Origin: an uncultured Thiohalocapsa sp.
GTDB lineage: Bacteria; Pseudomonadota; Gammaproteobacteria; Chromatiales; Chromatiaceae
NCBI RefSeq assembly: GCF_913063425.1
Contig: NZ_CAJXYK010000044.1
Coordinates: 1 to 52,445, forward strand
Reading direction: 5' to 3'
Length of the DNA: 52,445 nucleotides
The position numbers were made by a program, and so were the translations under genes. Numbering within the stretch: position 1 is the stretch's first letter; every line of letters starts with the position of its first letter. Shown one piece after another: positions 5,869 through 51,579 of the stretch. Below the pieces are notes generated by a model that was given only the letters and a program-made list of their open reading frames with translations, was not told where the DNA came from and searched no databases.

Positions 5869-5949
5869 GTGAAGGTGCTGGCCTGGTACGACAACGAAAT
5901 GGGCTATGCGGCGCAGATGGTGCGCGCGGCCGTGCAGGTGCTCGGCTGA
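5869..5949 (+). pseudogene. C-terminal remnant of glyceraldehyde-3-phosphate dehydrogenase
   Basis: A short frame of 26 codons reads VKVLAWYDNEMGYAAQMVRA and ends in a stop. The WYDNE-GY signature is the highly conserved last helix of type I GAPDH. The other roughly 300 residues are absent: the sequence before GTG 5869 is the end of the kinase gene. This is therefore the 3' end of a deleted gap gene. Translation from the GTG would give a peptide without NAD-binding or catalytic parts. Confidence 0.85.
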
Positions 5950-5952
5950 CGC

Positions 5953-6030
5953 GTGGGAGCGGCATCCCTGCCGCGACGGCTGCCAGCGCAGCTGAGTGCC
6001 AGCTCCGTCGCGGCCAGAGGCCGCTCCCAC
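5953..6030. repeat. 78-bp REP-like hairpin element, locus 1 copy 1
   Basis: The element begins GTGGGAGCGGCATCCCTGCC and ends GGCCAGAGGCCGCTCCCAC, so its outer arms GTGGGAGCGGC/GCCGCTCCCAC are inverted repeats. The core contains CAGCTGAGTGCCAGC. It lies right after the GAPDH stop and is followed 13 bp later by a second copy. Confidence 0.85.
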
Positions 6031-6043
6031 GGCGTCCCTCGCT

Positions 6044-6121
6044 GTGGGAGCGGCATTCCTGCCGCGACGACTGGCAGTGCAGCTGAGTGCCAGCTCCGTC
6101 GCGGCCAGAGGCCGCTCCCAC
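6044..6121. repeat. 78-bp REP-like hairpin element, locus 1 copy 2
   Basis: Nearly identical to the copy at 5953-6030, with only a few changes in the first half of the core, and in the same orientation. The pair sits between the GAPDH remnant and the ATPase gene. Confidence 0.85.
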
Positions 6122-6209
6122 GGTTGCCGCGTGCCCTTTTTGGCTCGAAGATCGGGCCCAGGCTCAATCATCGCGCGCGGGCACCGACACCTCCCGCAGC
6201 GCCGGCAGC

Positions 6210-8900
6210 ATGGATCGACCGACAGTGACAGCGCCCTACCAGCAATCCGCCGATACCCTGGTCGATGCCCTCGACAGCAGCGTCGAGCAGGGCCTGGACG
6301 ACGCCGAAGTCAAACGCCGGCGCGAGGAGCACGGGCCGAACCGCCTGCGCGAGGCGCAATCGCGGCCCACCTGGCGCATCCTGGTGGATCAGCTCGCGAG
6401 CCTGATCGTGCTGCTGCTGGTGGCGGCGGCGGTGGCCGCGGCGGTGTTCGGCCGGGTGGTCGAGGCCATTGCCATCGGCGCCGCGGTGGCCGTGAACACC
6501 GTCATCGGCTTCGTCATGGAGCTGCGGGCCACCCGCGCTATGGAGGCGCTGCAACGCATGGGCAAGGCGCAGGCCCGAGTGCGCCGCGGCGGCAAAGAGC
6601 GCACGCTCTCGGCCGACGAGCTGGTGCCAGGCGACATCGTGCTGCTGGAGGCCGGCGACGTGGTGAGCGCGGACCTGCGGCTGCTGGAGGCCAACCGCCT
6701 GCAGTGCGACGAGGCCGCGCTCACGGGCGAGTCCGTGCCCGTCACCAAGCGCACCGGCACCCTGGACCGCGACGACCCGCCACTGGCGGAGCGCGAGAAC
6801 ATGGCCTTCAAGGGCACCGCGGTCACCGACGGCTCGGGCTTAGGGTTAGTCGTCGCCACCGGTATGGACACCGAGCTTGGGCACATCTCCAGCCTGGTGG
6901 AGGAGGCGGAGTCGTCCGAGACGCCGCTGGAGCAGCGCCTGGAGCAGCTGGGCCGGCGGCTCATCTGGCTCACCATCGCCATCGCCGGCGTGGTGGCGGC
7001 GGCGGGACTCATCGCCGGCAAGGCGATGATGGTGATGCTGGAGACGGCCATTGCGCTGGCCATCGCCGCGGTGCCCGAGGGCCTGCCGGTGGTCGCCACG
7101 CTGGCCCTGGCCCGCGGCATGCGCAAGATGGCCAAGCGCAACGCCGTGGTGAAGCGGCTCTCCGCCGTCGAGACCCTGGGCACCGCCAGCCTGATCTTCA
7201 CGGACAAGACCGGCACCCTCACCGAGAACCACATGACCCTGGCCCGGCTCGGCCTTGCCGCAGGCACGCTGACGCTGGAGCGGGAGCAGGACGGCGCCCG
7301 CTTCCTGCGCGACGACGACACGGAGGTGGCGCTGGACGACATGCCCGGCCTTGCGGATGCGCTCACCGTGGGCGCGCTCTGCAACAACGCGAGCCTGCAG
7401 GAGGCGGGCAGCGTCGGCGATCCCACGGAGGTGGCCTTGCTGGAGGGCGCCGCCGCCGCCGGGCTGCATCGGGACGAGCTGCTGGAGCGTCTGCCCGAGG
7501 AGCGGGAGGTGAGCTTCGATCCGGACCTCAAGCTCATGGCGACCATCCACGCCGAGGACGACGGCTGGCGCTACGCCGTCAAGGGCGCACCGGAGGCGGT
7601 GCTGGAGCACTGCCGCAGGGTGCGCACCGGCGACGGCGACGCCGAGCTTGCCGACGCCGACCGCGAGGACTGGCAAACCCGCAGCGAGCAGCTCGCGGCC
7701 GACGGTCTGCGCGTGCTCGCCGTCGCCGAGAAGCATGCCGACAAGGCCGACGCCGAGCCCTATGCGGACCTGACGCTGCTGGGGCTCACCGGACTCTACG
7801 ATCCGCCGCGCCCAGGCATCGACACCACCATCGCCGCCTGCCAGGACGCCGGCATCCGCGTGGTCATGGGCACCGGCGATCATGCGGCCACGGCGCAGGC
7901 CATCGCCGTCGAGATCGGCCTCAGTAAGCCGGATGCGGAGGCCGTCGACGCGTCGACGATCAAGGACTTGCAGGCCCTGGACGAAGACGGGCGCGAGCGG
8001 TTGCTGGCCAGCGACGTCTTCGCCCGCATCAGCCCGGAGCAGAAGCTGCGCCTGATCGACCTGTATCAGGATGCGGATTGGGTGGTCGGCATGACCGGCG
8101 ACGGCGTCAACGACGCCCCCGCGCTCAAGCAGGCGGACATCGGCATCGCCATGGGCCAGCGCGGCACCGAGGTGGCCCGGCAGGCGGCGGACATCGTGCT
8201 CAAGGACGACGCCTTCGAGACCCTGGTCCACGCCATCGAGCACGGCCGGACCATCTTCCGCAACATCCGCCGCTTCATCGTGTATCTGCTCTCCGGCAAC
8301 CTCGCCGAGATCATGGCGGTGTCCGCGGCGGCCGTGGTGGGCGCACCGCTGCCGCTGCTGCCTTTGCAGATCCTCTACATCAACTTCGTCTCGGACGTCA
8401 TGCCCGCGCTGGCGCTGGGCCTGAGCCCGAGCCGCCCCGGCGTCATGGACGAGCCGCCCCGGGCCAAGCACGAGCCCATCCTGCAGCGCAGCCACTGGGT
8501 GGCGATCGCAGGCTATGGCGCGCTCATCGCCGCCACCGTGCTGGTGGCCTTCACGCTGGCCTTCCTCTGGCTGGATCTGGACACCGGTCAGGCCGTCACC
8601 ATCGGCTTCCTGACCTTCGGCCTCGGGCGCCTGCTGCACGTACTGAACATGCGCAGCGCCGACTCACCGGTCTTCATCAACGAGATTACCCGCAACCCCA
8701 TGGTCTGGGTGTCCATCGGCGTCGGTGTGGCCCTGCTGGCGCTGGCCGTCTGGCTGCCGGTGGCGGCGGAGGTGCTGTCCATCCAGCCGCTGCCGCCCGC
8801 AGGCTGGCTGCTGGTGCTGGGGTTCTCGCTGCTGCCGCTGTTGCTGGCACAGCTGACCAAGCTTTGGCTCGCAACGCGCCGGCGAATGGCCAGAGAATGA
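6210..8900 (+). CDS. Cation-translocating P-type ATPase (P2 type)
   Basis: An 896-residue membrane pump that uses ATP to move a cation, probably Ca2+, Mg2+ or Na+, across the inner membrane. It has the N-terminal cation-ATPase domain, two early membrane helices (about 60-105), an actuator domain with LTGES (171-175), the PEGLP helix (289-293), the phosphorylated Asp332 in DKTGT, the hinge MTGDGVNDAP and six C-terminal helices. Length is normal. The ATG at 6210 starts the usual N-terminal domain; upstream open frame crosses the REP pair. Leu211 and Leu213 are both encoded by TTA, unusual in this GC-rich gene. It is a useful internal reference for the damaged ATPase at 42269-44647. Confidence 0.92.
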   Translation: MDRPTVTAPYQQSADTLVDALDSSVEQGLDDAEVKRRREEHGPNRLREAQSRPTWRILVDQLASLIVLLLVAAAVAAAVFGRVVEAIAIGAAVAVNTVIGFVMELRATRAMEALQRMGKAQARVRRGGKERTLSADELVPGDIVLLEAGDVVSADLRLLEANRLQCDEAALTGESVPVTKRTGTLDRDDPPLAERENMAFKGTAVTDGSGLGLVVATGMDTELGHISSLVEEAESSETPLEQRLEQLGRRLIWLTIAIAGVVAAAGLIAGKAMMVMLETAIALAIAAVPEGLPVVATLALARGMRKMAKRNAVVKRLSAVETLGTASLIFTDKTGTLTENHMTLARLGLAAGTLTLEREQDGARFLRDDDTEVALDDMPGLADALTVGALCNNASLQEAGSVGDPTEVALLEGAAAAGLHRDELLERLPEEREVSFDPDLKLMATIHAEDDGWRYAVKGAPEAVLEHCRRVRTGDGDAELADADREDWQTRSEQLAADGLRVLAVAEKHADKADAEPYADLTLLGLTGLYDPPRPGIDTTIAACQDAGIRVVMGTGDHAATAQAIAVEIGLSKPDAEAVDASTIKDLQALDEDGRERLLASDVFARISPEQKLRLIDLYQDADWVVGMTGDGVNDAPALKQADIGIAMGQRGTEVARQAADIVLKDDAFETLVHAIEHGRTIFRNIRRFIVYLLSGNLAEIMAVSAAAVVGAPLPLLPLQILYINFVSDVMPALALGLSPSRPGVMDEPPRAKHEPILQRSHWVAIAGYGALIAATVLVAFTLAFLWLDLDTGQAVTIGFLTFGLGRLLHVLNMRSADSPVFINEITRNPMVWVSIGVGVALLALAVWLPVAAEVLSIQPLPPAGWLLVLGFSLLPLLLAQLTKLWLATRRRMARE

Positions 8901-8982
8901 GGCCGGGCAACGACCCTGTGCACCCCTGCAAAAGCAGGGCGACCCCCCCCAGGTCCGCGGACGTCAGTCGGCCCCCGGGGCG

Positions 8983-9000
8983 GGCGGACTTCAGTCCGCC
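8983..9000. terminator. Hairpin between convergent genes
   Basis: Perfect inverted repeat GGCGGACT-TC-AGTCCGCC between the ATPase stop and the end of the convergent RibD-like gene. It lacks a T-run, so it may be a dispersed palindrome rather than an intrinsic terminator. Related GGCTGAGGTC(C/T)GC words occur near 20855 and 24110. Confidence 0.4.
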
Positions 9001-9041
9001 GATGCCGGAGCCCCGCCCCGCCTCAGGCCTTCTGCAGCGCT

Positions 9042-9920
9042 TCAAGATCCCCCGGCGTCCCTGCGGTCATAGACCTGCATCAGCTGGTCCACACCGTCTG
9101 GCCCCTGGGCATCCAGGTACAGGGCGCTGAGGCTGAAATCATAGGGTGGCCGCAGCCGCGCCCCCTGCACGAGGGTCGCGTAGTCGGCCCCGCCCAGGAT
9201 GCGGGTCACGGTGGTCATGTAGAGCCGCTTCAGTAAGCGGCTCTGCAACAACAGATGCAGGACCTCCAGGCCGGCCGTGGAGTAGACCAACCGCAGCCCC
9301 CGCTCCGTCAACGCCGCGCTCAGCCGGCGGCCCTCGACGGACCACGCACCCAGACGCAACACCTCGGCACCCGCGTTCGCCGCCGCCTCCCGCGCGGCCT
9401 CGGGTGCATCGTCCACGCTGGCGACGATGAGCCGATGCGCCTGTGCAAGCCGCTCCAGCGCTTGGACCGGCAGATGCAACGACCGGGTGACGACCACCAA
9501 AGCCGGCTGCTGGGGCAGGGATTGCCGCTCGCGGAACGCCAGCAGATCCGCCGGCGCATCTTTGCTGAACGGCGGCCAGGCCTGGGCGCTGCCTGCGCCG
9601 AGCTCGCGCACGTGGCGTCCGCTCAGCATGATCGCGTCCGCCGGAGCCGCCAGCTCCAGCAGCAGCCGCCAATCCCGCGGATTGGCGGTCTGGGCCGGCA
9701 CGCCGAGCCGTCCCGTCCCAGGGTCGGCCACCGCAATGCGCCCATCCAGACTGGTGATGAAGTTGCTGTAGACGAAGGTCCCTGACGCAGCGATCTGTGA
9801 TCGCAGGTCTTCGCACAGGTAGAGCCCGCACAAGGGCACTGGCTTTGCCTGCGGATACAGCATCAGCAGGCCACCACCCGCCCCGTGCTCCGACTGCGAT
9901 TGATTCGTTTCCGTTGCCAT
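9042..9920 (-). CDS. RibD C-terminal domain (dihydrofolate reductase-like) protein
   Basis: A 292-residue single-domain protein of the RibD_C/pyrimidine reductase fold, which uses NADPH to reduce pyrimidine or pterin-like substrates. The family motif SNFITSLDGRIA (about residue 50) and the C-terminal stretch around residues 235-260 ending TRILGG are clear. The deaminase half of true RibD is absent, so it is probably not the sole riboflavin enzyme. The ATG at 9920 has GGGGAAG about six bases upstream. It converges with the ATPase gene. The 252 bp upstream (9921-10172) hold no gene, only a dispersed repeat. Substrate unknown. Confidence 0.8.
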   Translation of the reverse strand: MATETNQSQSEHGAGGGLLMLYPQAKPVPLCGLYLCEDLRSQIAASGTFVYSNFITSLDGRIAVADPGTGRLGVPAQTANPRDWRLLLELAAPADAIMLSGRHVRELGAGSAQAWPPFSKDAPADLLAFRERQSLPQQPALVVVTRSLHLPVQALERLAQAHRLIVASVDDAPEAAREAAANAGAEVLRLGAWSVEGRRLSAALTERGLRLVYSTAGLEVLHLLLQSRLLKRLYMTTVTRILGGADYATLVQGARLRPPYDFSLSALYLDAQGPDGVDQLMQVYDRRDAGGS

Positions 9921-10112
9921 CGAGCTTCCCCGTTACGCGCCGGGCGCCTTTGTTTGCCCGCACACGCAACGCAACACGCGATGCGCTCCGGGATGACCTG
10001 AAAGCAGCAAAGACTGCGCCAGGCAGCTCATTCTTCTGGGTGAGCAGCCTGAAAACCTGCGCGCGGCGCCTGCCGTCCGCGGCACCCGGCGGGCGCTCAT
10101 CACTCAGGTGAG

Positions 10113-10145
10113 TGTCGGGTTACGCTGTCGCTGACCCGACCTACC
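10113..10145. repeat. Dispersed GTAGGTCGGGTCAGCG-type element, copy 1
   Basis: On the minus strand it reads GGTAGGTCGGGTCAGCG followed by ACAGCGTAACCCGACA, a partial palindrome. The first 17 bases recur exactly at 35290-35306, and the second half recurs with one mismatch at 48482-48504. It lies downstream of the regulator gene. Confidence 0.65.
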
Positions 10146-10172
10146 GAAGCGCTTATCGCAACCGCAGAAAAG

Positions 10173-11867
10173 CTACTCGGGGAGACCGAGCCGGGCCACC
10201 GCCCGGGCCAGCGTCTCCCGCTGCCCGGGGTCCTTGAGCGGAAAGGCGAACAGAAGCCGGGACAGCGAGAACTCCGGGCTCAGGGTCAACAGCTCGTCAA
10301 CCTGCCACGCAGCTTCCTCCGGGTGCCCGAGCTGGGACAGCGCCGCCGCCAGCCAAAGGCGGGCGCGGGTATGGGCGGGGTTACGCGCCAACGCCGCTTC
10401 GAATGCCTCTGCGGCCTGAGCATAGGCGCCCTTGGTGAAGGCAATCTCGCCCGCGATCTCGCGGTACGACGCCGAGGAGCCGGGGTTGCGCCGGTGTGCT
10501 TCAGTGAGCGCGGCCTCGGCGCGATCCGATCGCCCGGCGTAATTGAATATCCAGGCCAGCAGTGCATAGGCATCCGCGTAATTGGGGTCCAGCTCGATGG
10601 CCCTGGCGGCGGAGGCGGCCGCGCCCGAATACCGAGCGCGGAACAGATCCACTTGGCCGCGCACGAAATGTATCTGCGGCACCGTCGCATCCAGCGACGC
10701 CGCCTTGTCCGCGTACTCGGCCGCTTTCATTAGGGCACGCTCCGCGTCGTCCGTCCAGCCGTCGATGGCGAGGCGTGACCACGTCAGCGCCATGCCGGCA
10801 TAAGCCCGTGCAAAGCCCGGATCCAGCTCGATTGCCCGCTCGAAATGCCGTCGCGCCGCGCGATTGTCCTCTGGGGTGAGACGGCCGTAGCGCTCACGTC
10901 CGCGCAGAAAGGCATCATAGGCGGCGATGCTCGCCGTCGCCGAGCTGCGCTCGAAGTGCGGCTCGGATAATGCCATACGCACCGGCAAGGCCGTTGCAAG
11001 GCCCCTGACGAGCTGATCCTGAATCCGGAACAGGCCGCTGGCCTCACCGGCAAACCGCTCCGCCCACAGCGTTTCGCCGCGCTCCGCTGCCAGCAGCCGG
11101 ACATTGATCCGGATGCGATCACCCAGGCGCTGGACCCCGCCGCGGATGAGGTAGTGGACACCGAGCTCGGCGGCGATCGCGGCATCCGTCGCCGCGGTCT
11201 CCCGATAGCCGAAGGCGCTGCCCGGCGCGATCACGAGCAGCCCCGGAATCCGCGACAGCTCGGTGATGACATCCAGGGTGATGCCTTCGGCGAAGTACCT
11301 GTGGGACGGGTTGCCACCGAGCAGCTCGAAAGGAATCACGGCCACCGAAGCCGCGCTCTCCCTGGATACCGCGGGAATCTGGGGCATGCGCGTGGTGCTC
11401 CAGTAGAGGAAAGCGGCGACGGCGATTGCCGCAGTCAGAAACAGCAGGCCGACGAGTCGGATGCGCTGCTTGCGTGCCCCGGCAAAGACGGTCATGTCCG
11501 GCGGCGGCCTCGCGGCACCAGCAGGCATGGGCGCGACCTTGAGCCGATAACCCCTCTTGGCGATGGTCTCGACGAAACGGGGGCTGCGGGCGTCATCGTC
11601 CAGGGCGCGGCGCAGTTTGCCGATGGCGTTGGTCAGGGCATCGTCCGTGACGATGCGACCCGGCCAGACCTGGTGCGCGAGCTCCTCACGTGTCACCACC
11701 TGATCGGGCCTGTCAGCCAGGGCCAACAGGACCTGCATGGTCTTCGCTTCGATGCGCTCGCAGGCGCCTGAGCGGCCCATGCACAGTGCCCCCGGGTCGA
11801 CCCTGACGTCGCCCAGCAAAAAGGGGTCGCGCGCGTCGCGGCCAAGCTGTTCGTGCGTGTCGCCCAT
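10173..11867 (-). CDS. Membrane-anchored winged-helix regulator with TolB-like and TPR domains
   Basis: A 564-residue protein built like CadC-type regulators. An OmpR/PhoB-type winged-helix DNA-binding domain (about 15-112; landmarks VVTREELAHQVWPG and GYRL) is followed by a Pro-rich linker, one transmembrane helix (about 135-155) and a periplasmic part. That begins with a TolB/adenylate-cyclase-associated region (about 170-300; SVAVIPFELL and YFAEGITLDVI) and ends in tetratricopeptide repeats (about 320-540). It likely senses an envelope signal and controls transcription from the membrane. The ATG at 11867 directly precedes the DNA-binding domain. The gene is divergent from a small exported protein, which is a candidate target. 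Confidence 0.85.
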   Translation of the reverse strand: MGDTHEQLGRDARDPFLLGDVRVDPGALCMGRSGACERIEAKTMQVLLALADRPDQVVTREELAHQVWPGRIVTDDALTNAIGKLRRALDDDARSPRFVETIAKRGYRLKVAPMPAGAARPPPDMTVFAGARKQRIRLVGLLFLTAAIAVAAFLYWSTTRMPQIPAVSRESAASVAVIPFELLGGNPSHRYFAEGITLDVITELSRIPGLLVIAPGSAFGYRETAATDAAIAAELGVHYLIRGGVQRLGDRIRINVRLLAAERGETLWAERFAGEASGLFRIQDQLVRGLATALPVRMALSEPHFERSSATASIAAYDAFLRGRERYGRLTPEDNRAARRHFERAIELDPGFARAYAGMALTWSRLAIDGWTDDAERALMKAAEYADKAASLDATVPQIHFVRGQVDLFRARYSGAAASAARAIELDPNYADAYALLAWIFNYAGRSDRAEAALTEAHRRNPGSSASYREIAGEIAFTKGAYAQAAEAFEAALARNPAHTRARLWLAAALSQLGHPEEAAWQVDELLTLSPEFSLSRLLFAFPLKDPGQRETLARAVARLGLPE

Positions 11868-12074
11868 TCCACAGATGAGTCTTCAACTCATTGATCAATG
11901 GTGGAAATGGAATAGCCCAGCAAATCCGTCGGAAAAAAGTCGGCGTTTCGTTAGGACTTCTTTTCAGTGTAGCGCTACTGCTGAAGGCAAGTGACGGCGC
12001 CGCCGCGGCGGCACCATCACGGCGACAGAGCGTTGCTGACAGCACGCCCAAACGAGACGACGGAGGAAACGAAC
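11868..12074. promoter_or_regulatory. AT-rich divergent intergenic region
   Basis: This is the least GC-rich stretch in this part of the window, between the divergent regulator and the small exported protein. It has a short palindrome ATTGATCAAT (near 11890-11899), a possible operator, and T-rich words (GTTAGGACTTCTTTTCAGTGTA, 11951-11972) that could hold the plus-strand promoter. I cannot fix exact -35/-10 boxes. Confidence 0.35.
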
Positions 12075-12371: not shown

Positions 12372-12406
12372 ATACCAGGCTTGCGCCTTCACCAACCTGA
12401 CCATGC

Positions 12407-12431
12407 GCCCCCGGCCGTGCAGGCCGGGGGC
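12407..12431 (+). terminator. Strong 10-bp-stem hairpin between two small genes
   Basis: Perfect arms GCCCCCGGCC and GGCCGGGGGC around the loop GTGCA, 35 bp after the stop at 12371. No T-run follows, so it may end or attenuate transcription by stem strength alone. Confidence 0.5.
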
Positions 12432-12451
12432 CATGCCACAGAGGTCACGAC

Positions 12452-13772: not shown

Positions 13773-13784
13773 GCCGCGGCGCCA

Positions 13785-14108
13785 TTGCCGGACTGCCTGC
13801 TGCTGGTGGAGTCCCGGGTTTGGTTCTGGGCGCTCGGCGCCCTGCTCGGCGTTTTCGTCGGGCCCGCCCAGGCCGCCGGGCGCTCCTGGCTGGCGCGGGC
13901 GGCACCCGCGGAGCTGCGCGCCGAGCTGTTCGGGCTGTTCGCGCTCTCGGGCAAGGCCACCGCCTTCGCCGGTCCGCTGCTGGTGGGCTGGGTGACCTGG
14001 CTCGCCGACAGCCAGCGCATCGGCATGGGCGTCATCGTCGTCTTCTTCGCCCTGGGGCTGCTGCTCCTGCTGACGGTGCCGGAGCAACGCGCACCTGGGC
14101 CCGCTTGA
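13785..14108 (+). pseudogene. C-terminal remnant of a UMF1/Atg22-like MFS transporter
   Basis: About 100 codons resemble the last three to four membrane helices of the UMF1 (Atg22-type) major facilitator family: VESRVWFWALGALLGVFVGP, then AAPAELRAELFGLFALSGKA, then GPLLVGWVTWL. Full members have about 400 residues and 12 helices; the first roughly 300 residues are missing. The frame starts only 13 bp after the transporter stop, with TTG as its first possible start. I call it the surviving 3' end of a deleted gene. The gap 14109-14279 holds nothing recognisable. Confidence 0.75.
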
Positions 14109-14279: not shown

Positions 14280-14825
14280 TCATTCGCCGGCGTCCGGACC
14301 GGCCGTTGCCGACACGCTCGCCAGCTCACCCACGTTGCGCGGCCTGGAGAAGACGTAGTCGCGGTCCTCCACCTGGGTGTGGCACTCGAAGCAGTCCTTG
14401 GCCGGGTCGATGTCCATCGCCTTGCCGTCGGCGCCGATCATCGCGAAGCGCCAGCCGCCGGTGTCCCGGGCGTCGGCGACCTTGCGCATCAGTGCGATGG
14501 CCTGCCCCTCGCCCTCGTTCAAGGTGCCGTCGCCCTCATCCAGCGCGTACACCATGCCGACGAATTCGGTCCCCTCCGGATACGGGCCGCCGCGGCGAAA
14601 GGCCTCCAGCCCGGCCGTGTTGATGTAGAACTCATGCATGCCGAAGAGCGGATTTTGCTGGTCCGTGACGACGAAGGCGTTCACGAAGCGATAGCCGGCG
14701 AGGCTCTCCGGTGCCGTCAGATCATCCGCGGCGGTTGCGGTGGACAGCGCTCCGAGGACGCAGCACAAGCATCCCGAGAGGGCCGCGACGACTTGCCGGA
14801 AGCTGATGGATGGGGCTGGGTACAT
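14280..14825 (-). CDS. Cytochrome P460 family protein
   Basis: A 181-residue exported c-type haem protein. A signal peptide covers about residues 1-33 (ends STATA). The mature part has the P460 fold landmarks LAGYRFVNAF and GGPYPEGTEFVGMVY, and one haem-attachment site CFECH near residue 145. Characterised P460 proteins oxidise hydroxylamine, giving N2O or related nitrogen oxides, in the periplasm with a Lys-crosslinked haem; I could not assign that lysine. Length fits the family. It lies about 3 kb from a NapC/octaheme pair of hydroxylamine-oxidoreductase type, which suggests a shared nitrogen-oxide role, although it is on the opposite strand. Confidence 0.85.
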   Translation of the reverse strand: MYPAPSISFRQVVAALSGCLCCVLGALSTATAADDLTAPESLAGYRFVNAFVVTDQQNPLFGMHEFYINTAGLEAFRRGGPYPEGTEFVGMVYALDEGDGTLNEGEGQAIALMRKVADARDTGGWRFAMIGADGKAMDIDPAKDCFECHTQVEDRDYVFSRPRNVGELASVSATAGPDAGE

Positions 14826-14897: not shown

Positions 14898-17336
14898 ATG
14901 TCGCCAGCGGCGGCATCAGGAAGCGTGCCAAAGGCTTGGGCAGGGGCCGGCGACGCCGCGGCGCCGCGGTTTCGCCGGCGGCCCTGGAGCGCCCGCCGCG
15001 TCAGCTCACCCGCTCTCGAGACCAATCTCACCGACGACGCCAGCGTCGAGGCCGCCCTGGAGCAGGTCGCCCGCGAGCATGGGCGGGAGATCGCCGTGGT
15101 CTTCCATCTGGCGGCCTACTACGACCTCTCCGGCGACGACCATCCGCTGTATCAGGCCCTCAACGTCGACGGCACCCGGCGGCTGTTACGCGCACTCAGG
15201 GCCGATTTCGCGGTGGAGCTGTTCGTCTATGCGAGCACCATGCTCGTGCATGCGCCCACGGTGCCGGGGGTACCGCTGACTGAAAACGCACCGCTTAAGG
15301 CCAAGTGGGCCTATCCCCAATCCAAGCTCGCCGCCGAGCAGGCGGTGCGCGAGGAGCACGGCGACCTGCCCACGGTGCTGCTGCGCATCGCCGGGCTCTA
15401 CACCGACGACTGCGGCTCGCCCTTCATCGCCCACCAGATCCAGCGTCTGTACGAGCGCCGCGTCACCGCGAGCCTGTACGCCGGCAATCCGAGCCGGGGA
15501 CAGAGCTTCATTCACATCGACGATCTGCTGTCGCTCTGCGCCCGACTCGTCGAGCACCGCGGGGACGTCACGGATGTGACACCGCTGCTCGCCGGCGAGC
15601 CCGAGGTGATGAGCTATCAGGCAATCCAGAACCGCCTTGCAGAGCTCCTGCACGGCGCCGAGGGCTGGCGCACCCACAGCGTGCCGCAGCCCGTCGCCGC
15701 CGCCGGCGCCTGGCTCCAGGCGCGCGCGGAGCCGCTGGTGCCGGATGCCCTGGACCGCGGCGAGGAGCCCTTCATCAAGCCCTACATGACCGCCCTCGCC
15801 GAGGACCACTACGAGATCGACGTCGCCCGTGCCCGCGCCCTGTTGAGCTGGAGCCCGCAGCACCGGCTGCGGGAGGCCCTGCCGCGGATGGTCGAGGCGC
15901 TGAAGGCGGACCCCGCCGGCTGGTACGGGCGCCACCAGCTGACCCCACCGCCCTGGCTCGTCACGGCCGCGGAGGCCGACTACGACCCGGATGCGATCCG
16001 TGCCACCTTCGAGCGCACGCGCCGCGACGAGCACGACGCCACCCGCTGGGCTCATTTCGTCAACATCGGTCTCGGCGCCTGGCTGCTGGCGAGTCCGCCG
16101 ACGCTCGGCTACACCAGCCAGGCCATGACCGTGAGCGACCTCGCGGCCGGCGCCGCCGTCATGCTTCTCGCGACGCTGTCGCTGTCCTGGCGGTTCGGCT
16201 GGGCGCGGCTCGCCACCGCCGCGGTGGGGCTTTGGCTCATGCTCGCCCCGCTGGTGTTCTGGGCGCCGGAGCCAGCGGCCTATCTGAACGGCACCCTGGT
16301 GGGCGCACTGGTGTTCTGCTTCGCCATCATCGTCGCCCCCACACCGGGCATCGCGCCCATGGCCAAGCTCACGGGGCCGAACGTCCCGCCCGGCTGGGAC
16401 TACAGCCCCTCGGACTGGACCCAGCGCCTGCCCATCATCGCGCTGGCCTGCGTCGGGCTCTTCATCTCGCGCTATCTGGCCGCGTTTCAGCTCGGCCACA
16501 CCCAGGCCGCCTGGGACCCCTTCTTCGGCGACGGCACCGAGCGCGTCATCACCTCCAGCATCTCTGAGGCCTGGCCGGTGCCGGATGCCGGTGCCGGGGC
16601 TTTGACCTACCTGCTGGAGATCGTCACCGGCCTGCTCGGCGGCCGTGCGCGCTGGCGCACCATGCCCTGGGTGGTGGTCCTGTTCGGCATCCTCATCGTG
16701 CCGCTCGGGGCGGTGAGCATCTTCTTCATCATCATCCAGCCCATCCTCATCGGCACCTGGTGCACGCTCTGCCTGGCGGCGGCGCTCGCGATGCTGCTCC
16801 AGATTCCGTATTCCTACGATGAGCTGGTGGCCACCTTTCAGTTTCTGCTGCACCGCAAGCGCCGGGGCAAATCGGTGCTGCGGGTTTTCCTGTTCGGCGA
16901 CACGGCGGACGGCGAGGACGCAGCCGCCGGCGCACGCAGCGAGCTGGACCGCCCCGCGGGCGCCGTGCTGCGCGAGGTCTTCGGCGGCGGCGTGCGCCTG
17001 CCCTGGACGCTGGCGCTGTCTGCGCTCATCGGCGTCGGTCTCATGGGCACCCGGCTCCTGTTCGACACCACCGGCGCCCAGGCGCACAGCGACCACCTGC
17101 TGGGCGCGCTCGTGGTGAGCGTCTCCATCGCCGCCCTCGGTGAGGTGGGCCGACCACTGCGTTGGGCCAACCTGATGCTCGGCGCCGGCCTCATGGGCGC
17201 CCCCTTCCTGTTCGACGGCGGCTCGCCGCTCGCGGACGCCGCCGGCATCGCGGCGGGCGCACTGCTGATGGTGCTGGCGGTGCCGCGGGGGAAGATCGCC
17301 CACCGCTATGGGGGCTGGAGCCGCTACATCGTTTGA
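14898..17336 (+). CDS. NAD-dependent epimerase / SPW-like / vitamin K epoxide reductase fusion, N-terminally truncated
   Basis: From about 15015 the frame encodes an extended-SDR epimerase: VFHLAAYYDLSG, a YxxxK pair in AYPQSK (Tyr138, Lys142 if counted from 14898) and FIHIDDLLSL. The first beta-alpha-beta unit with the GxxGxxG NAD loop is missing; the 40 codons from ATG 14898 show no homology. After the epimerase come paired membrane helices resembling SPW repeats (about 390-480), a VKOR-like membrane domain with the redox pair Cys622-TL-Cys625, and a second SPW-like pair (about 710-800). Without the NAD loop the epimerase is probably inactive; the membrane part could still be made. The VKOR loop cysteines are not evident. 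Confidence 0.7.
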   Translation: MSPAAASGSVPKAWAGAGDAAAPRFRRRPWSARRVSSPALETNLTDDASVEAALEQVAREHGREIAVVFHLAAYYDLSGDDHPLYQALNVDGTRRLLRALRADFAVELFVYASTMLVHAPTVPGVPLTENAPLKAKWAYPQSKLAAEQAVREEHGDLPTVLLRIAGLYTDDCGSPFIAHQIQRLYERRVTASLYAGNPSRGQSFIHIDDLLSLCARLVEHRGDVTDVTPLLAGEPEVMSYQAIQNRLAELLHGAEGWRTHSVPQPVAAAGAWLQARAEPLVPDALDRGEEPFIKPYMTALAEDHYEIDVARARALLSWSPQHRLREALPRMVEALKADPAGWYGRHQLTPPPWLVTAAEADYDPDAIRATFERTRRDEHDATRWAHFVNIGLGAWLLASPPTLGYTSQAMTVSDLAAGAAVMLLATLSLSWRFGWARLATAAVGLWLMLAPLVFWAPEPAAYLNGTLVGALVFCFAIIVAPTPGIAPMAKLTGPNVPPGWDYSPSDWTQRLPIIALACVGLFISRYLAAFQLGHTQAAWDPFFGDGTERVITSSISEAWPVPDAGAGALTYLLEIVTGLLGGRARWRTMPWVVVLFGILIVPLGAVSIFFIIIQPILIGTWCTLCLAAALAMLLQIPYSYDELVATFQFLLHRKRRGKSVLRVFLFGDTADGEDAAAGARSELDRPAGAVLREVFGGGVRLPWTLALSALIGVGLMGTRLLFDTTGAQAHSDHLLGALVVSVSIAALGEVGRPLRWANLMLGAGLMGAPFLFDGGSPLADAAGIAAGALLMVLAVPRGKIAHRYGGWSRYIV

Positions 17337-17973: not shown

Positions 17974-18015
17974 GACAACGCCGAGGGATTCGGCATTTCC
18001 GGTGCGGAGCGGGTC

Positions 18016-19997: not shown

Positions 19998-20138
19998 TCA
20001 GTCCTCTGAGGCGCGGTCTATGAGCGTCTTGAGCGCCGAGACACCGCCGGCAGAGCACCCGACCACGATGACGTCCACCGCCGGTAACGGTGATGACAGC
20101 GTCAGCTCATCCCGCCCCCGGGCATTCTCCGCATCCAT
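19998..20138 (-). pseudogene. N-terminal stub of a CheB-type methylesterase
   Basis: A 46-codon frame on the minus strand reads VDVIVVGCSAGGVSALKTLI near its end and then stops. The G-S-A-G-G nucleophile loop is the start of the CheB catalytic domain; the intact version in the fusion gene at 24224 reads IVGIGASAGGLDPL. All other parts of CheB, including the catalytic His and Asp, are missing. It is probably the 5' remnant of a deleted cheB or cheB/cheR fusion gene. Confidence 0.7.
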
Positions 20139-34138: not shown

Positions 34139-34560
34139 CTACCATGCAGGCTGTCCCCGGGGGACCGGACCGTACGGGGGGAGCCGATGGCGATTGTGCT
34201 CGGCCCGAAAGGCGACGAACGCGTCTTCGTCGTCGAAATGCAGGAAGGGGTTGCCGCGGCGCTGCTCAGCCATCGTCGTGCTGGCCGCAGCCGCATATCG
34301 ATGGCCGGGATGCACGATCACCGGGTCGGCGATGCGCTCGGCGAGCTTCCTCAAGGATCGGAACATGCTGCCGGGGTCCGATCCCGCGAGGTCGCAGCGC
34401 CCGCAGCCGTAGACAAACAGCGTATCTCCGGTGAAGAGATCGTTGCCCAGCCGGTAGCAGCATCCGCCCGGCGAGTGGCCGGGCGTCATCAGTATCTCGA
34501 TGCTCAGATCGCCGACCGCGATGACCGTCTCGGCAGGGTCATGCCGGACAGCGCGAGGCC
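34139..34560 (-). pseudogene. C-terminal half of an MBL-fold hydrolase (persulfide dioxygenase/glyoxalase II-like)
   Basis: Reading on the minus strand, homology begins near 34560 (DPAETVIAVGDLSIEILMTP) and runs to a stop at 34139. Metal ligands of the second half are present: TPGHSPGG, FTGDTLF and HPGHRY. The N-terminal half with the THxHxDH site is missing, so the protein cannot bind both metals. The frame has no start before the internal ATG at 34489. It is joined directly to the first codons of a second YeeE gene, showing a deletion that removed the 3' end of one and the 5' half of the other. Confidence 0.8.
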
Positions 34561-34608
34561 GGCGGCGAACAGCACGCCCGACGAGAATACGAACAGGTAT
34601 CCAGGCAT
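34504..34608 (-). pseudogene. 5' stub of a second YeeE/YedE (DUF6691-type) gene
   Basis: The ATG at 34608 overlaps the preceding YeeE stop as TGATG. It encodes MPGYLFVFSSGVLFAAGLAL then SGMT, the characteristic first helix of the second YeeE half-transporter, and then shifts into MBL sequence in another frame and stops at 34504 after 34 codons. Intact genes of this type encode about 140 residues, so about 110 are missing. Confidence 0.8.
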
Positions 34609-35036
34609 CAGAATACCTCCCACAGGTGTCTTACCGCGTAGGTGGTGAGAACCGCAAATCCGAAGAACACGGCGCTCGCCACAATCGAGCGCGGAGCGAG
34701 CCGACCGACGCCGCAGACACCGTGGCCGCTGGTGCAGCCGTTACCGATACGGGTTCCGATACCGACCAGGAATCCGCCCAGAATCACGGCGGAGTCGGAA
34801 ACGTCGATGCGCAGATCGAATGACGCCGGATGCAGCCACAGCATGATCAGGGCACCGGCGAACAGGCCAAGCAAGAACACCGCACGCCACAGGGTGTCGT
34901 CCTTCTGCGGGCGCAGGACGCCGCCCATAATGCCGCTGATACCGGCGATTCGGCCGTTGAAGTAGAGCAGGCCGACGGCGGCGAGGCCGATCATGATGCC
35001 GCCGATGGTCGAAAGTACGGGCGTAAATCCTTCCAT
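34608..35036 (-). CDS. YeeE/YedE family sulfur-compound transporter subunit
   Basis: A 142-residue inner-membrane protein with four helices and the family motif GIGTRIGNGCTSGHGVCG (about 92-109), whose cysteine is needed for thiosulfate or sulfide-derived sulfur uptake in characterised YeeE. Half-size YeeE proteins usually act with a second half-size partner encoded next door; that partner is reduced to a stub here, so transport may be lost. The ATG at 35036 begins the first hydrophobic segment; longer in-frame starts add unrelated residues. Confidence 0.87.
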   Translation of the reverse strand: MEGFTPVLSTIGGIMIGLAAVGLLYFNGRIAGISGIMGGVLRPQKDDTLWRAVFLLGLFAGALIMLWLHPASFDLRIDVSDSAVILGGFLVGIGTRIGNGCTSGHGVCGVGRLAPRSIVASAVFFGFAVLTTYAVRHLWEVF

Positions 35037-35351
35037 CCTGTCCTCCGGGTCAGGGTTCTCGACTCTACCCACAAGCAATCGCCGTGCCTCCGACTTGCGA
35101 CAGTGCATTCGGCGCGGGGGCGGGCAAGACGCAGACCAGCAGTGACAGGCCGAGCACGCGCAAGGCACGGCGAAGAAACGGCAGTGAACAGACACATGGG
35201 TACCGGCTGCGCAAGCACCCCGCGTAGGTCGCCATCAGCGCTACGTCGCCCGAGCGGGCAGGTAACGCCTTGATCGTCGGACACGCGAGCGCTGACCCGA
35301 CCTACCAGTGACGAGGTTTGCCGGCGCGCTGGCCGGACGTTCCCGGTCTGA
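35037..35351. other. Intergenic region with dispersed repeat copy 2
   Basis: No gene supported. It contains CGCTGACCCGACCTACC (35290-35306), identical over 17 bases to 10129-10145, and a partial opposite-facing version near 35222 (CGTAGGTCG), so an imperfect palindrome of about 85 bp. On the minus strand a signal-peptide-like stretch (LRVLGLSLLVCVLPAPAPNA) lacks a start codon and may be another remnant. Confidence 0.45.
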
Positions 35352-37989: not shown

Positions 37990-38225
37990 ATGGCCGACCA
38001 ACAGCAACCCCCCCAGCATCAAGCGCGTCAGCCGGGACGCGAGGGCGAGATGCGCCCGCAGCCCGAGTACATCCGCGAGAGCTACCGCGGCAGCGACAAG
38101 CTGCGCGGCCGCGCCGCCATCGTCACCGGCGGCGACAGCGGCATCGGCCGCGCGCCAGCGAGGACGGCTCTTACATGTCGGGGCAGGTGCTGCACCCCAA
38201 TGGCGGCGTCGTGGTGAACGGCTGA
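37990..38225 (+). pseudogene. SDR oxidoreductase gene with a large internal deletion
   Basis: The first 55 codons encode the start of a YghA-like short-chain dehydrogenase: EMRPQPEYIRESYRGSDKL, then AAIVTGGDSGIGRA with the NAD-binding TGxxxGIG. At about 38154 the sequence jumps, two bases out of frame, to the last 22 codons of the same kind of protein (ASEDGSYMSGQVLHPNGG..., stop at 38225). About 200 residues, including the catalytic Ser-Tyr-Lys, are missing. Both ends of one gene are kept in order, so this is a deletion rather than an insertion. Confidence 0.85.
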
Positions 38226-42268: not shown

Positions 42269-44647
<2,379 letters not shown>

Positions 44648-46449: not shown

Positions 46450-47454
46450 TCAATCCATCACACTCACGCTGACCTGCGGCTCCACGCCCCGCCAGCGGTC
46501 CACCAGCGCCGCCTCCACTTCGGCACGCAGCCGGGCTGCGAGGTCCTGCGCGGCCGCCGACCCACCCGCGGCATCGCCCGTGGGCTGCGCATAGATCTGC
46601 CCGAGCAGGGTTGCCTGCCCGGCCTGGCGCTGGCCGGTAAAGCGGAAGCTCGCCTCCAGCACTCGCGCCGCCCCCTGCTGCTGCACGGCATCCTCCGCCA
46701 GCTCCTGCGCCTTGCGGACGATACTGAGGCGCTCGAGCCCGGCGTCGCCGCCGAACTGCCAGAGCACGAGTCCGATGAGGCAAGCCGCCGTCGCCGCCAG
46801 CGCCGCCATGCCGCCGCGGTGGCGCTTGCGGCCGAAGCGGGGTCCGCTCGCCGCAACCCCGTAGCGCCAGAACACCAGCGCCCCGGCGAGCAGGATGCCG
46901 AGGAACTGCAGGACGAGCAGGAACAGACCGCTGCGCGCCATCTCCCAGCGCCCGAGCACCAGGGCCGCGCCGAGCAGGCCCGCCGGCGGCGCCAGGGACA
47001 CCGCCACCAGCATGCCCACGGCGGCGGTGGACACCAGGCTGTCGCGCTCCGACTGCACCAGGCCCACGGCACCGGCCGCACCGGAAACCAGCGCCAGCAC
47101 CAGCGCCGATTCCATGATCAGCGAGACATCGACCATCAGTGCCGTCGGCCCCAGCAGACCTGTGCCCCAGGTGGCGAGGGCCGAGGTTGCCACCGCCACC
47201 GCGAGTCCCGCCCAGTAGCGCAGGACGCTGGAGCCGAGCAGCTTCAGATCCCCGCTGACGGCACCGATGGCCGCGTTCATGGCGGGACCGGCGTAGGGCG
47301 CGATGAGCATCGCCGCCACCAGCAGGTGGACGATATTCGTGGCGAATGCGACCCAGACAACGACACCGGAGGTGAGGGAGAAGACCAGCTCGCGGGCCGC
47401 CGCCGCGACCTCGCCGCCCCGGCCCCGCGGCACTTGGATATGCAGCTCGCGCAT
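46450..47454 (-). CDS. DUF389 (TIGR00341-like) membrane protein with shortened N-terminus
   Basis: A 334-residue protein with five helices, then a soluble C-terminal domain (about 225-334). FATNIVHLLVAAMLIAPYAG (about 38-57) is the DUF389 hallmark. The first 22 residues, MRELHIQVPRGRGGEVAAAA, look like the first strand and helix of the small N-terminal domain of this group, but then the sequence enters the first membrane helix at once; the remaining roughly 80-90 residues of that domain seem to be missing in frame. I cannot exclude a naturally short variant. Start at ATG 47454. Confidence 0.75.
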   Translation of the reverse strand: MRELHIQVPRGRGGEVAAAARELVFSLTSGVVVWVAFATNIVHLLVAAMLIAPYAGPAMNAAIGAVSGDLKLLGSSVLRYWAGLAVAVATSALATWGTGLLGPTALMVDVSLIMESALVLALVSGAAGAVGLVQSERDSLVSTAAVGMLVAVSLAPPAGLLGAALVLGRWEMARSGLFLLVLQFLGILLAGALVFWRYGVAASGPRFGRKRHRGGMAALAATAACLIGLVLWQFGGDAGLERLSIVRKAQELAEDAVQQQGAARVLEASFRFTGQRQAGQATLLGQIYAQPTGDAAGGSAAAQDLAARLRAEVEAALVDRWRGVEPQVSVSVMD

Positions 47455-47848
47455 CTGTGTCCTCCGTCCTCTCCCACAGGGGTAGACGCCATGGTCGCCG
47501 GCGCCGTGCATGGCCGGGACAGAACGCAGCAACGCTTATGCCATTGCGCGGGGGACGGCGGCCGGCCGTCGTGCGCGCCCCCAGCCACGCAGGAGCATGC
47601 GGCGCAGGCCCCGGCGCGGCGGCGCGAAGTGGGCATTGCCACCGCTGGCAAGGGCAAATCCCCCGGCGGCGCCACGGCTCCCCGGCCTGGCGGCGGCTCG
47701 CCTCCCCCGGGGTCCGGCGAATGCCGACGGGGCAGCCTTGCCGCTGCGCGTTGGCAGGAAGCCTGCATACGGGCGCCTGACGCCGGCGGCCGTGCACGCA
47801 GCGCTCACCGCCGTATCCCCACCTGCAGAGTCAGTCCCGCATTCAGCC
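47455..47848. other. Divergent intergenic region
   Basis: Between the DUF389 gene and the VIT1 remnant. Open frames here have no starts or domains that I can support. No clear promoter boxes. Confidence 0.4.
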
Positions 47849-48218
47849 ATGCCCGGACCCGTCGCCCGCCTGGGCAGCTCCCTCAAGACCTCCGCCGGCG
47901 ACGTCGTCTTCGGCATGGAAGACAGCGCGGTGTCCGTCTTCGGGCTCGTCTTCGGTGTCGCTGCAGCCACTGACCAGACCGACCAGGTGCTGGTGGCCGG
48001 CATCACCGGCGCCTTTGCCGCCGCCGTCTCCATGATGGCGGGTGCCTTTCTGGAGCGACAATCCGGTGGCGGCCATTGTGCGACGGCGCCCGGCACTGGC
48101 TATGGTCACGGGAGACTTCGTCTACGGCCCGACGGACGAGGACATGGACGATGTCCGCGAGGAATGGCGGGAGTCCGAGCTGATACCGAGCTGGGACCCG
48201 ACGGCGGCGACGGATTGA
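47849..48218 (+). pseudogene. VIT1/CCC1 family gene fragment joined to an out-of-frame unknown tail
   Basis: Codons 1-69 encode the first two helices of a VIT1/CCC1-type transporter (DVVFGMEDSAVSVFGLVFGV, then AVSMMAGAFLE). At about 48056 this homology ends. A second frame (48057-48218) continues as DNPVAAIVRRRPALAMVTGD, then FVYGPTDEDMDDVREEWRES and a stop. I do not recognise that tail; its composition looks like real protein. Most likely a deletion joined the start of a transporter gene to the end of a neighbouring gene. Confidence 0.7.
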
Positions 48219-49137: not shown

Positions 49138-49189
49138 GGCCTGTGTCTCCAAATCGGATTGCGGTGGGTATTGGATTGCGCTTCGCGTG

Positions 49190-49519
49190 TCACTGGGATT
49201 CGGGGATGTCGCCGGGGGACGTCTGCCAACCGAGGAAGGGCCTGTTCCACCATTCCTGGTCCGCACGCTCATAGGCGGACCAATCATCGGCGTAGCGCTC
49301 ATCGTCCCACCACTCGTCGTTCTCAGCCACGTCCGCCTCATAGTCGAAGTCGCGGTCGTAGTAGCCGTAATCGTCCCTGTCCCAGTTCCCGGACTGGAAG
49401 GTGCCGTAGTCGTCATCGTTCCAGTAGGCGCGCTCGTCCCAGGGCTCCAGCGCGTGCGCGCCGAGCGAGCCCAGCGCGAAGGTGACGAGAAGCAGTGAAA
49501 AGCCGGTCAGTCGTTTCAT
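49190..49519 (-). CDS. Exported very acidic, Trp/Tyr/Asp-rich protein
   Basis: A 109-residue protein with a signal peptide (1-23, ends AHA). The mature part is dominated by Asp, Glu, Tyr and Trp (for example WDRDDYGYYDRDFDYEAD), with very few basic residues, so it is strongly anionic and probably disordered. No family recognised. The composition suggests metal binding or interaction with polycations (speculation). It precedes the OB-like exported protein on the same strand. Confidence 0.65.
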   Translation of the reverse strand: MKRLTGFSLLLVTFALGSLGAHALEPWDERAYWNDDDYGTFQSGNWDRDDYGYYDRDFDYEADVAENDEWWDDERYADDWSAYERADQEWWNRPFLGWQTSPGDIPESQ

Positions 49520-50161
49520 CAAGGGATCCTCCGTCGTGGCAATAGGGGTCGGCGTCATCGCCGGCCTGCCCGCTTCGGTTTGCGGGTCTCGGACATGCAG
49601 CAACCGCGATGCCAGCCCGCGCAGACGCCCGGGGTGGCAGGTCGATGCAGGGTGCCTGGCCGACGGCGCTGCGTTGGCCGGAGCCCAAACTTCCCAGCGC
49701 GGCACGCAGGTCGGCGGGAGCCGTCTGTGCGGGCGTTGCGGGTGATGCCGTCGGCTCTGAACCGCGCCGGCGGTGGGGCGTCGACAGAGGCGCGCTCAGT
49801 GGGCGCACTGGGCGACGCTGCCGCAACCCCGCGGCGCGACCGAGGCCGCGCCCACTACCCTGCCCTCGGCCCTGATAGGTGGTGAACACCACCGCCGGCG
49901 TGGGATTCCAACCTGTCCGTATCGCCATGCCCCGGCAGGCGGGATGCGGCGCGTCCCGCGGCCCCGCACGTCTTCGGCCGGGGCCTGAAATCCCCCGGTG
50001 TGGCATCGGCTGTGCACTGCTGTTGTGGGGTCTGTTCGGCCTGGTCGGGGTGAGCGCTGTTCGGCACTGCGCTTGAGCGCAAAGGCCCGCCACCCCACCG
50101 CGCCGAGCACGCCGGGAATGGCCCGGTCGGCCGGGCAACAGCGCATGCAGTGAGGCCAGAC
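49520..50161. other. 642-bp divergent region without a supported gene
   Basis: It has several overlapping open frames on both strands, none with a domain or ribosome site. An inverted repeat with arms GTGGGCGC/GCGCCCAC spans 49799-49855 and resembles the REP-like elements in size. The promoters of both flanking genes should be here. Confidence 0.45.
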
Positions 50162-51088
50162 ATGTCCTATATCCGCTTCGGCCTGATGATTCTCACATCG
50201 GCGGTGGTGATGCTCATCCTGATGTATCTGAACACCTACGCCTGGGAGCACCTGTTCTTTTCCGAGACACGCGCTTACATGGCCATTCTGATGGGCGCTG
50301 CCATGGCCATCGTGATGCTCGCCTACATGCTGGGCATGTACGCCAATGGGCCGCTCAACCTGGCCATCTTCGTCGGTGCCGCCATCGTCTTCGCGCTGTC
50401 GCTCTGGCTCGTGCGCAGCCAGGTGACGGTCTCCGGGCCAAGCTACATGCGGGCGATGATCCCGCACCATTCCATCGCCATCCTGACGTCGGAGCGGGCA
50501 CAGATCCGCGATCCGCGCGTGCGCAAGCTCGCGGACGAGATCATCTCGGCCCAGCGCCGGGAGATCGCCGAGATGCGCTGGCTTATCGCCGAGGTCGCGG
50601 CCGGCAGAACCGTGGACAGCATCTACCAGGACCCGCCCGCGGCGCCCGGCACGGTGGCGCAGGCCCTCGACAACACCCTCGTCAGCCACCTGGATCCCGC
50701 CCCCGTGCCAAAGGCCGACGCTGCGCCGATGCTCGGCACCGCGGACCGCTGTGCCTTCCGCCGCAGCCCCGCGTCGCACCCCATTCTGTGGGCGGCCCAG
50801 GACGGCAGCACGGCGGTCATGCAGCTGAACGGCGTGCTGCTCCAGCTCGACGGCGCAGGGCGCACCGGCGGCCTTAGCGCCGAGTACCGCACGGAAGGCG
50901 CCCGGGTTGTGGTGCGCCCCTTGGGCGAGGCGGCCGACTGGCGCGCCGACGCCGAGCTCGTATTCACACTGGGCACGGGCCTGAGCGCCGGCTACCGCGG
51001 CTTCTACCGCTGTGGCGACCCCGAGCCGAGCAACCAACAGGCGGTGGGGGTCGCCGTCGGCGGCCGTCTGCCCCACCTCCTCAACTGA
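50162..51088 (+). CDS. DUF305-containing membrane protein with extra C-terminal domain
   Basis: A 308-residue protein. Three membrane helices (about 5-28, 38-60, 65-83) precede a DUF305 segment (about 95-145) with MRAMIPHHSIAIL and REIAEM, which is four-helix metal/ligand-binding in related proteins. The last 110 residues form a beta-rich domain with two cysteines (DRCAFRRS and GFYRCGDP) resembling MliC/C-type-lysozyme-inhibitor-like folds, probably periplasmic. The combination is one that I do not know from characterised proteins. Start at ATG 50162. Confidence 0.75.
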   Translation: MSYIRFGLMILTSAVVMLILMYLNTYAWEHLFFSETRAYMAILMGAAMAIVMLAYMLGMYANGPLNLAIFVGAAIVFALSLWLVRSQVTVSGPSYMRAMIPHHSIAILTSERAQIRDPRVRKLADEIISAQRREIAEMRWLIAEVAAGRTVDSIYQDPPAAPGTVAQALDNTLVSHLDPAPVPKADAAPMLGTADRCAFRRSPASHPILWAAQDGSTAVMQLNGVLLQLDGAGRTGGLSAEYRTEGARVVVRPLGEAADWRADAELVFTLGTGLSAGYRGFYRCGDPEPSNQQAVGVAVGGRLPHLLN

Positions 51089-51111
51089 CGGATTCGACCC
51101 ATGCAACCCCT

Positions 51112-51579
51112 TTGCAATTCGGCGTATGGCCGGCACGACCACCCCGCCTTGCCCCCAGTCAAGCCCCTGCACCCACGCTGATGCTGCTCATGGATCTGCT
51201 GCTGTTCGGCATTTACGGCATCACGGTCTGGGCCGTGCAGATGCTCTGGATTCCGGTTTTCGCCGCCGGCGTCATCACCGGCGTCGGCCACTACTGGGGC
51301 TATCGCAATTTCGAGACCCCGGACGCCTCCACCAACATCCTCCCCAGGGGTGCGCTGATCGGCAGCGAAGAGCTCCACAACAATCACCACGCTGTGCCGC
51401 CGCTGTGCTGGCGCGCACCCGCCGCCAGCTGGATGCAGCCGGTCGGCCGAGCCTTCAGGCCCAGCGCTGGACGAGCGTGCGCTTGGCGACCGTGCTTACG
51501 GACATGCGCCTGCCAAGCGCCCGGGCGGTGTTCACCAGGGCGCCCCGCAGGCGGGCGGGTCACACGCGCCGGCGTATGA
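51112..51579 (+). pseudogene. Fragment of an acyl-CoA/fatty acid desaturase
   Basis: About 75 codons (from near 51181) match the later part of bacterial acyl-CoA desaturases: VWAVQMLWIPVFAAGVITGV, GHYWGYRNFE and the third histidine box EELHNNHHAVP. The first two histidine boxes and the N-terminal helices are missing, and after HAVPP the sequence loses similarity and continues as Arg/Pro-rich open frame. The active site cannot form. Both ends of the gene are lost. Confidence 0.78.

What the first reader, a model, noticed from the sequence alone, without database searches (positions are those of the whole stretch)
5869..51579. At least eleven genes carry deletion scars in 46 kb
GAPDH (5869), UMF1 MFS (13785), epimerase-VKOR (14898), CheB (19998), YeeE-2/MBL (34504-34560), SDR (38154), P-type ATPase (44370), SSS symporter (45365), DUF389 (about 47390), VIT1 (48056) and desaturase (51112-51400) each keep one or both ends of a gene while the rest is absent. 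No transposase or phage gene lies at any junction. Seen directly: the partial homologies and frame breaks. Inferred: either ongoing short-deletion decay or assembly loss. Such density next to many intact genes is unusual.
Basis: partly seen in the sequence, partly recalled or inferred. Interest (0 to 1): 0.75.

Follow-up and report, generated by a model that had tools for sequence, protein, structure and literature searches.

The report
Accessory region eroding by short deletions
A stretch of a purple sulfur bacterium's genome holds many genes with pieces cleanly cut out beside whole genes, most likely real and recent deletions in dispensable genes, because separately sequenced relatives carry cuts of the same kind.

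Summary
The observation largely holds. Of the 11 loci, 7 are confirmed against intact copies in relatives (GAPDH, UMF1, epimerase-VKOR, YeeE/MBL, P-type ATPase, SSS, desaturase). Three rest on partial family matches (VIT1-2 good; SDR and CheB weak). DUF389 is inconclusive. The window is one contig of a Thiohalocapsa-related genome (Chromatiaceae); the closest held genome is the isolate T. halophila DSM 6210. Resolved cuts remove 351-1014 bp with 1-3 bp of overlap (one 10-15 bp, imperfect); no transposase family appeared in 48 proteins scanned. The density is unusual: 3 clean gene-cutting gaps in 15.1 kb aligned to T. halophila, against 0 in 162.8 kb of seven other colinear stretches. Similar cuts occur in other assemblies: RibD in T. 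halophila, and VIT1 plus a serially cut SSS gene in the one-contig genome G127 (a CheB-CheR case in G001 is weaker). This favours biology over assembly loss, but no reads exist here for the window's own junctions. Remnants show no further decay where it could be measured, so the cuts are recent. Best reading: recent, fast deletion decay of redundant accessory genes by illegitimate recombination. The process is known; the crowding and recurrence are the interesting part.

The parts
5868..5945 (+). GAPDH remnant: last 27 codons or so; about 1013 bp with the rest of the gene gone at 5868
   Evidence: Whole GAPDH at this place in G008 (329 aa), G001 and G009
9042..9863 (-). RibD_C-domain gene, whole here; T. 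halophila lacks 480-481 bp of it (9146-9625), a cut in the relative
13785..14108 (+). UMF1-type MFS remnant, residues 333-431 of 436
   Evidence: Pfam ATG22 385-477 of 482; whole gene G008:C80 7250-8560
14280..14825 (-). Cytochrome P460 gene lying between the cut UMF1 and the cut epimerase
   Evidence: 926 bp here against 384 bp in G008
14925..17336 (+). Epimerase-SPW-VKOR fusion gene lacking its N-terminal nucleotide-binding part; homology starts at 15016
20007..20069 (-). Possible CheB remnant, first 21 profile positions (weak)
   Evidence: Pfam E 0.06; no plasmid match
34155..34521 (-). Metallo-beta-lactamase-fold (MBL) gene remnant, 3' part
   Evidence: Pfam Lactamase_B 129-187 of 196; G009:C56 whole arrangement, 772 bp missing here
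34519..35090 (-). YeeE pair: YeeE-1 and the 5' end of YeeE-2, fused to the MBL remnant at 34519-34521
   Evidence: Sulf_transp
37990..38222 (+). SDR remnant keeping the N-terminus (to about 38160) and, in another frame, a C-terminus-like end
   Evidence: C-terminus by eye
42269..44647 (-). P-type ATPase, open frame of 792 aa, with a 351-bp in-frame deletion at 44362-44376
   Evidence: E1-E2_ATPase starts at profile position 74; G008:C6 and G001:C68
44766..45463 (-). SSS symporter with both ends and 899 bp missing in the middle at 45366-45368
   Evidence: G157, G089, G127 whole at this point; SSF C-terminus only
46450..47532 (-). DUF389 gene, domain complete; a cut near 47390 is not shown
47900..48064 (+). 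Second VIT1 gene, N-terminal remnant (profile 3-58 of 214)
51178..51392 (+). Desaturase internal fragment, 215 bp
   Evidence: 88% to G008:C1 gene 44654-45844; same bounds against many family genomes

Best explanation
The scars are real and recent. In a region of non-core genes, some of which have other copies in the genome, pieces of about 0.35-1.1 kb were lost by illegitimate recombination (strand slippage or end joining with almost no homology), without insertion sequences and without Ku. Selection does not hold these genes, so cuts survive, and remnants are presumably erased by later deletions. Shown: the junctions, whole copies in relatives, a local excess in the stretches compared, and cuts of the same kind in other assemblies. 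Inferred: relaxed selection, the repair route and the recency.
For: Whole relatives at 7 loci. Excess: 3 clean gene-cutting gaps in 15,115 aligned bases of the window chain against 0 in 162,799 of seven other chains; 8 abrupt intragenic alignment ends in 17,821 against 6 in 135,983 bases (binomial P 5e-5, or 0.0012 with the window's ends collapsed to 6 loci). Other assemblies: RibD 481 bp in T. halophila, VIT1 384 bp in G127, CheB-CheR about 790 bp in G001 (the last against 62-77% identical paralogues, so weaker); in G127 a second SSS gene lost 533 and 346 bp on both sides of a 32-bp island, and 240 and 89 bp nearby. Remnants of GAPDH, UMF1, SSS and MBL (1446 bp) have no stop in the coding frame. 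No Ku in G000, G008, G127.
Against: None of the window's own junctions is seen in a second assembly and no reads were available. Two of the three clean events counted are in the window's genome (one in a short called frame near 28897), the third in T. halophila. Absence of decay would also be expected of an assembly fault.
Confidence: 0.75

Rival explanations
1. Assembly loss: the assembler dropped 0.3-1.1 kb pieces and joined the ends in this contig.
For: Remnants look fresh; no junction of the window is seen in another assembly; sizes are within a usual read-pair span (recalled, no call).
Against: Overlaps of 1-3 bp at three of the four resolved joins; five missing pieces of 65-72% G+C, like their surroundings; no N; GAPDH and UMF1 pieces not found elsewhere in G000; no gene-cutting clean gap in 162.8 kb of the other chains, all from the same assembly; similar cuts in a one-contig genome.
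Confidence: 0.13
2. Replacement by taken-up DNA: uptake with one-sided homology puts foreign pieces in and removes resident ones, so that breaks fall inside genes.
For: A P460 gene sits between two cut genes where G008 has 384 other bases; ComEC in 5 of 5 genomes searched; window 588-19954 is about 90% identical to T. halophila while most other chains are 80-88%.
Against: The other resolved cuts (GAPDH, YeeE/MBL, ATPase, SSS) bring in no new bases.
Confidence: 0.08
3. Some short forms are stable working genes, for example the in-frame ATPase or the shortened epimerase-VKOR.
For: The ATPase keeps a 792-aa open frame with gaps in multiples of three against G001; against G008 the aligner also placed smaller gaps, both frames staying open; the epimerase keeps an open frame of about 800 aa with 133 of 206 differences at one codon position.
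Against: The ATPase lacks the stretch between its N domain and position 74 of E1-E2_ATPase; the epimerase lacks its nucleotide-binding N-terminus. GAPDH, SSS, SDR and desaturase remnants are too short to work (inference).
Confidence: 0.04

Closest known systems
Gene decay by deletional bias in bacteria (recalled general knowledge; no paper on it was read here)
   Same: Loss of unneeded genes by deletions that leave remnants beside whole genes.
   Different: Crowded in one region of a large free-living genome; clean cuts rather than frameshifts and stops; little further decay.
IS-driven plasticity of Thiohalocapsa sp. PB-PSB1 (PMC9296519; passages and section 7 read)
   Same: Same genus; structural variation.
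   Different: PB-PSB1 has 606 IS elements (9.42%), T. halophila 45 (0.84%); no transposase family was seen in the window proteins scanned.
Homology-facilitated illegitimate recombination during natural transformation (recalled)
   Same: Breaks inside genes with little homology; could explain the P460 replacement.
   Different: Four resolved cuts carry no inserted DNA.

Membership tests
Deletional gene decay | Whole orthologue at the same place or in close relatives | tested here: met
   7 of 11 loci; 3 supported by partial matches only, 1 inconclusive
Deletional gene decay | Little or no homology and no mobile element at the joins | tested here: met
   Overlap 1, 3, 3 and 10-15 bp (imperfect) at four resolved joins, read against diverged relatives; no transposase family in 48 proteins
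Deletional gene decay | Genes are dispensable | tested here: inconclusive
   Two other GAPDH genes and many other SDR genes in G000; no test of need
Deletional gene decay | Junctions present in the living cell | not testable with these tools
   No reads
Assembly artefact | Missing pieces elsewhere in the assembly, N runs, or extreme composition | tested here: not met
   GAPDH and UMF1 pieces not found (40 of 861 candidates scored); no N; G+C 65-72%
Assembly artefact | Occurs throughout the same assembly | tested here: not met
   0 gene-cutting clean gaps in 162.8 kb of other chains; only part of the 5.9 Mb was compared
IS-mediated deletion | Transposase gene or IS end at the joins | tested here: not met
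   48 proteins, Pfam; IS ends without genes were not sought
Ku-dependent end joining | Ku gene in the genome | tested here: not met
   Absent in 6 of 7 genomes searched, G000, G008 and G127 among them; two copies in G001

The most novel reading that the evidence does not exclude
An active, IS- and Ku-independent process repeatedly cuts 0.1-1.1 kb pieces out of the same accessory gene sets in several purple sulfur bacteria, fast enough that remnants vanish before point mutations gather: a regional deletion hotspot, not just relaxed selection.
Probability: 0.18. Interest if true: 0.6.

Novelty: new member of a known kind. Interest (0 to 1): 0.38.

Why it matters
How free-living bacteria with large genomes clear unwanted genes is mostly seen in its end state. 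A region with many fresh cuts, whole relatives for most of them and similar cuts in another genus would let deletion size, end homology and rate be measured directly. It also warns that gene tables of such genomes count fragments as genes.

Tried and rejected
Plasmid origin: megablast of window 1-25000 and 28000-52445 against plasmid records matched 54 and 45 records, the best places covering 9% and 3% of the query, so no plasmid like this stretch was found (10 rows of each seen). Structured RNA: no Rfam match at gathering scores. Pieces moved elsewhere in the assembly: not found for GAPDH and UMF1. Coverage loss through G+C: not supported. Truncation throughout these genomes: of 88 SDR matches in five genomes (17 in G000) only one, in G008:C19, sits in a clearly short frame; the window's own SDR remnant is not detected at that cutoff. 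Of 24 SSF matches in five genomes, the lone fragments are the window's and a remnant in G127. A palindromic repeat of about 90 bp lies next to the GAPDH remnant but also next to the whole GAPDH of T. halophila, so it was dropped as the cause. Rows dropped: matches of G1C13, G1C30 (13781) and G1C9a with 1.2-3.2 kb gaps, all against loci of the same genome G001 and on short matches, were not counted as cuts, nor was an intergenic 142-bp gap in G008; one similar row (G1C9a against G1C13); intergenic gaps of the window at 4774-4782 were listed but not counted as gene cuts; the YeeE stretch was left out of the decay count because two genes in different frames lie in it. Papers: Thiohalocapsa with pseudogene gave 3 papers and two wider searches gave 33 and 580, listings only; none of the titles listed is on this question.

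Full report
What the window is. The window is a whole contig (G000:C44) of a 5.90-Mb, 117-contig genome, 99% complete. The closest held genome, G008, is Thiohalocapsa halophila DSM 6210: the PfkB gene beside the GAPDH cut finds record NZ_NRRV01000080, which has the length of G008:C80. The genus lies in Chromatiaceae. The window's own species is named by no call, and I do not know whether its genome is from an isolate or a metagenome.

Checking the eleven loci. Seven have a whole counterpart in a relative. GAPDH: window 5868 joins the end of PfkB to the last codons of GAPDH; T. halophila has a 329-aa GAPDH there, and G001 and G009 have one too. UMF1: 99 of 436 codons remain. Epimerase-VKOR: homology starts at 15016, and the N-terminal nucleotide-binding stretch that G008 and G001 share is replaced by other sequence beside a P460 gene. 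YeeE/MBL: 772 bp lost relative to G009. P-type ATPase: 351 bp lost in frame relative to G008 and G001. SSS: 899 bp lost from the middle relative to three genomes (all). Desaturase: a 215-bp internal piece. VIT1-2 rests on a strong partial Pfam match; SDR and CheB on weak ones, the SDR helped by tblastn to whole SDR genes. DUF389 keeps its whole domain and is not shown to be cut.

Is it more than expected? T. halophila was the yardstick. From 1.23 Mb of G000 (window included) and 1.20 Mb of G008, eight colinear chains were found. Gaps closed on one side (15 bp of overlap to 4 bp of space) and missing 60-4000 bp on the other were counted. Those cutting a called gene were 3 of 4 in 15,115 aligned bases of the window chain and 0 of 3 in 162,799 aligned bases of the other seven chains. 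Of the three, two are losses in the window (GAPDH; a short called frame near 28897) and one is a loss in T. halophila (RibD). The UMF1 and epimerase breaks did not meet the strict rule. A looser count of abrupt intragenic alignment ends gave 8 in 17,821 and 6 in 135,983 bases (binomial P 5e-5; 0.0012 with the window's ends collapsed to 6 loci). The other chains are at 80-88% mean identity against 89% in the window chain, so they mostly had more time to collect cuts. Coding fraction and share of short genes of the window (0.793; 0.28) lie within the range of the other contigs, so it does not stand out on those measures.

Real or assembly? For real: the resolved joins have 1, 3, 3 and 10-15 bp (imperfect) of overlap; five lost pieces are of 65-72% G+C; for GAPDH and UMF1 they were not found in the rest of the assembly (40 of 861 candidates scored); the compared rest of the same assembly shows no such gene cuts. 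Other assemblies show cuts of the same kind: 481 bp in RibD of T. halophila and 384 bp in VIT1 of G127, the latter seen against three genomes; about 790 bp in a CheB-CheR gene of G001 is weaker, being measured against 62-77% identical genes. G127 is one contig of 5.48 Mb. Its second SSS gene lost 533 and 346 bp on the two sides of a 32-bp island, and 240 and 89 bp are missing nearby relative to G157; it also carries a stop and a frame change, so there decay has gone further. SSS is also the gene that lost 899 bp in the window, with different ends. Against: none of the window's own junctions is seen twice, and no reads were available.

Recency. GAPDH, UMF1, SSS and MBL remnants (1446 bp) have no stop in the coding frame, and in UMF1 99 codons align without a gap. 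Differences gather at one codon position (GAPDH 7 of 9, UMF1 24 of 36, SSS 62 of 106 and 11 of 17, MBL 50 of 73), as in the intact neighbours PfkB (36 of 60), ATPase-1 (151 of 222) and VIT1-1 (52 of 65); GAPDH against G001 is less clear (6 of 12). So the cuts are young compared with the split from the relatives, or remnants vanish quickly. Assembly loss would look the same on this test.

Mechanism. No transposase family was seen in 48 proteins, and Ku is absent from G000, G008 and G127, though G001 has two copies. This leaves slippage or Ku-independent joining at near-zero homology; the route is inferred. Some cut genes have other copies in the genome (GAPDH on C10 and C21; SDR on other contigs), which fits relaxed selection. 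ComEC in all five genomes searched and the P460 gene between two cut genes leave room for uptake-driven replacement at that one place.

Verdict. Short-deletion decay of accessory genes is a known process (recalled). The regional crowding, the freshness and the recurrence of such cuts in other genomes of the family make this a good case for measuring it. Novelty is modest and interest moderate.

Noticed in passing
window 273-379, 5946-6123, 29449-29630: Palindromic repeats of about 90-180 bp, belonging to families with many copies in T. halophila, often in tandem about 91 bp apart, and with copies on other G000 contigs.
   Followed up: no
window 588-19954: About 90% identical to T. halophila, while most other colinear stretches sampled are 80-88% and window 28705-33350 is 82-85%; perhaps exchanged between lineages.
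   Followed up: no
G127:C1 3741000-3752000 (L194): A second SSS gene with two deletions around a 32-bp island and a stop; further short gaps in the neighbouring stretch.
   Followed up: partly
window 4775-4857: G001 and G009 have an SDR gene between the EF-hand and PfkB genes; window and T. halophila have none there.
   Followed up: no
window 24224-28600: Whole 1458-aa CheB-CheR-PAS-histidine kinase-receiver hybrid, absent at this place from T. halophila.
   Followed up: no
G001:C59 11627-14309: Two Ku genes in G001, none in the other six genomes searched.
   Followed up: no
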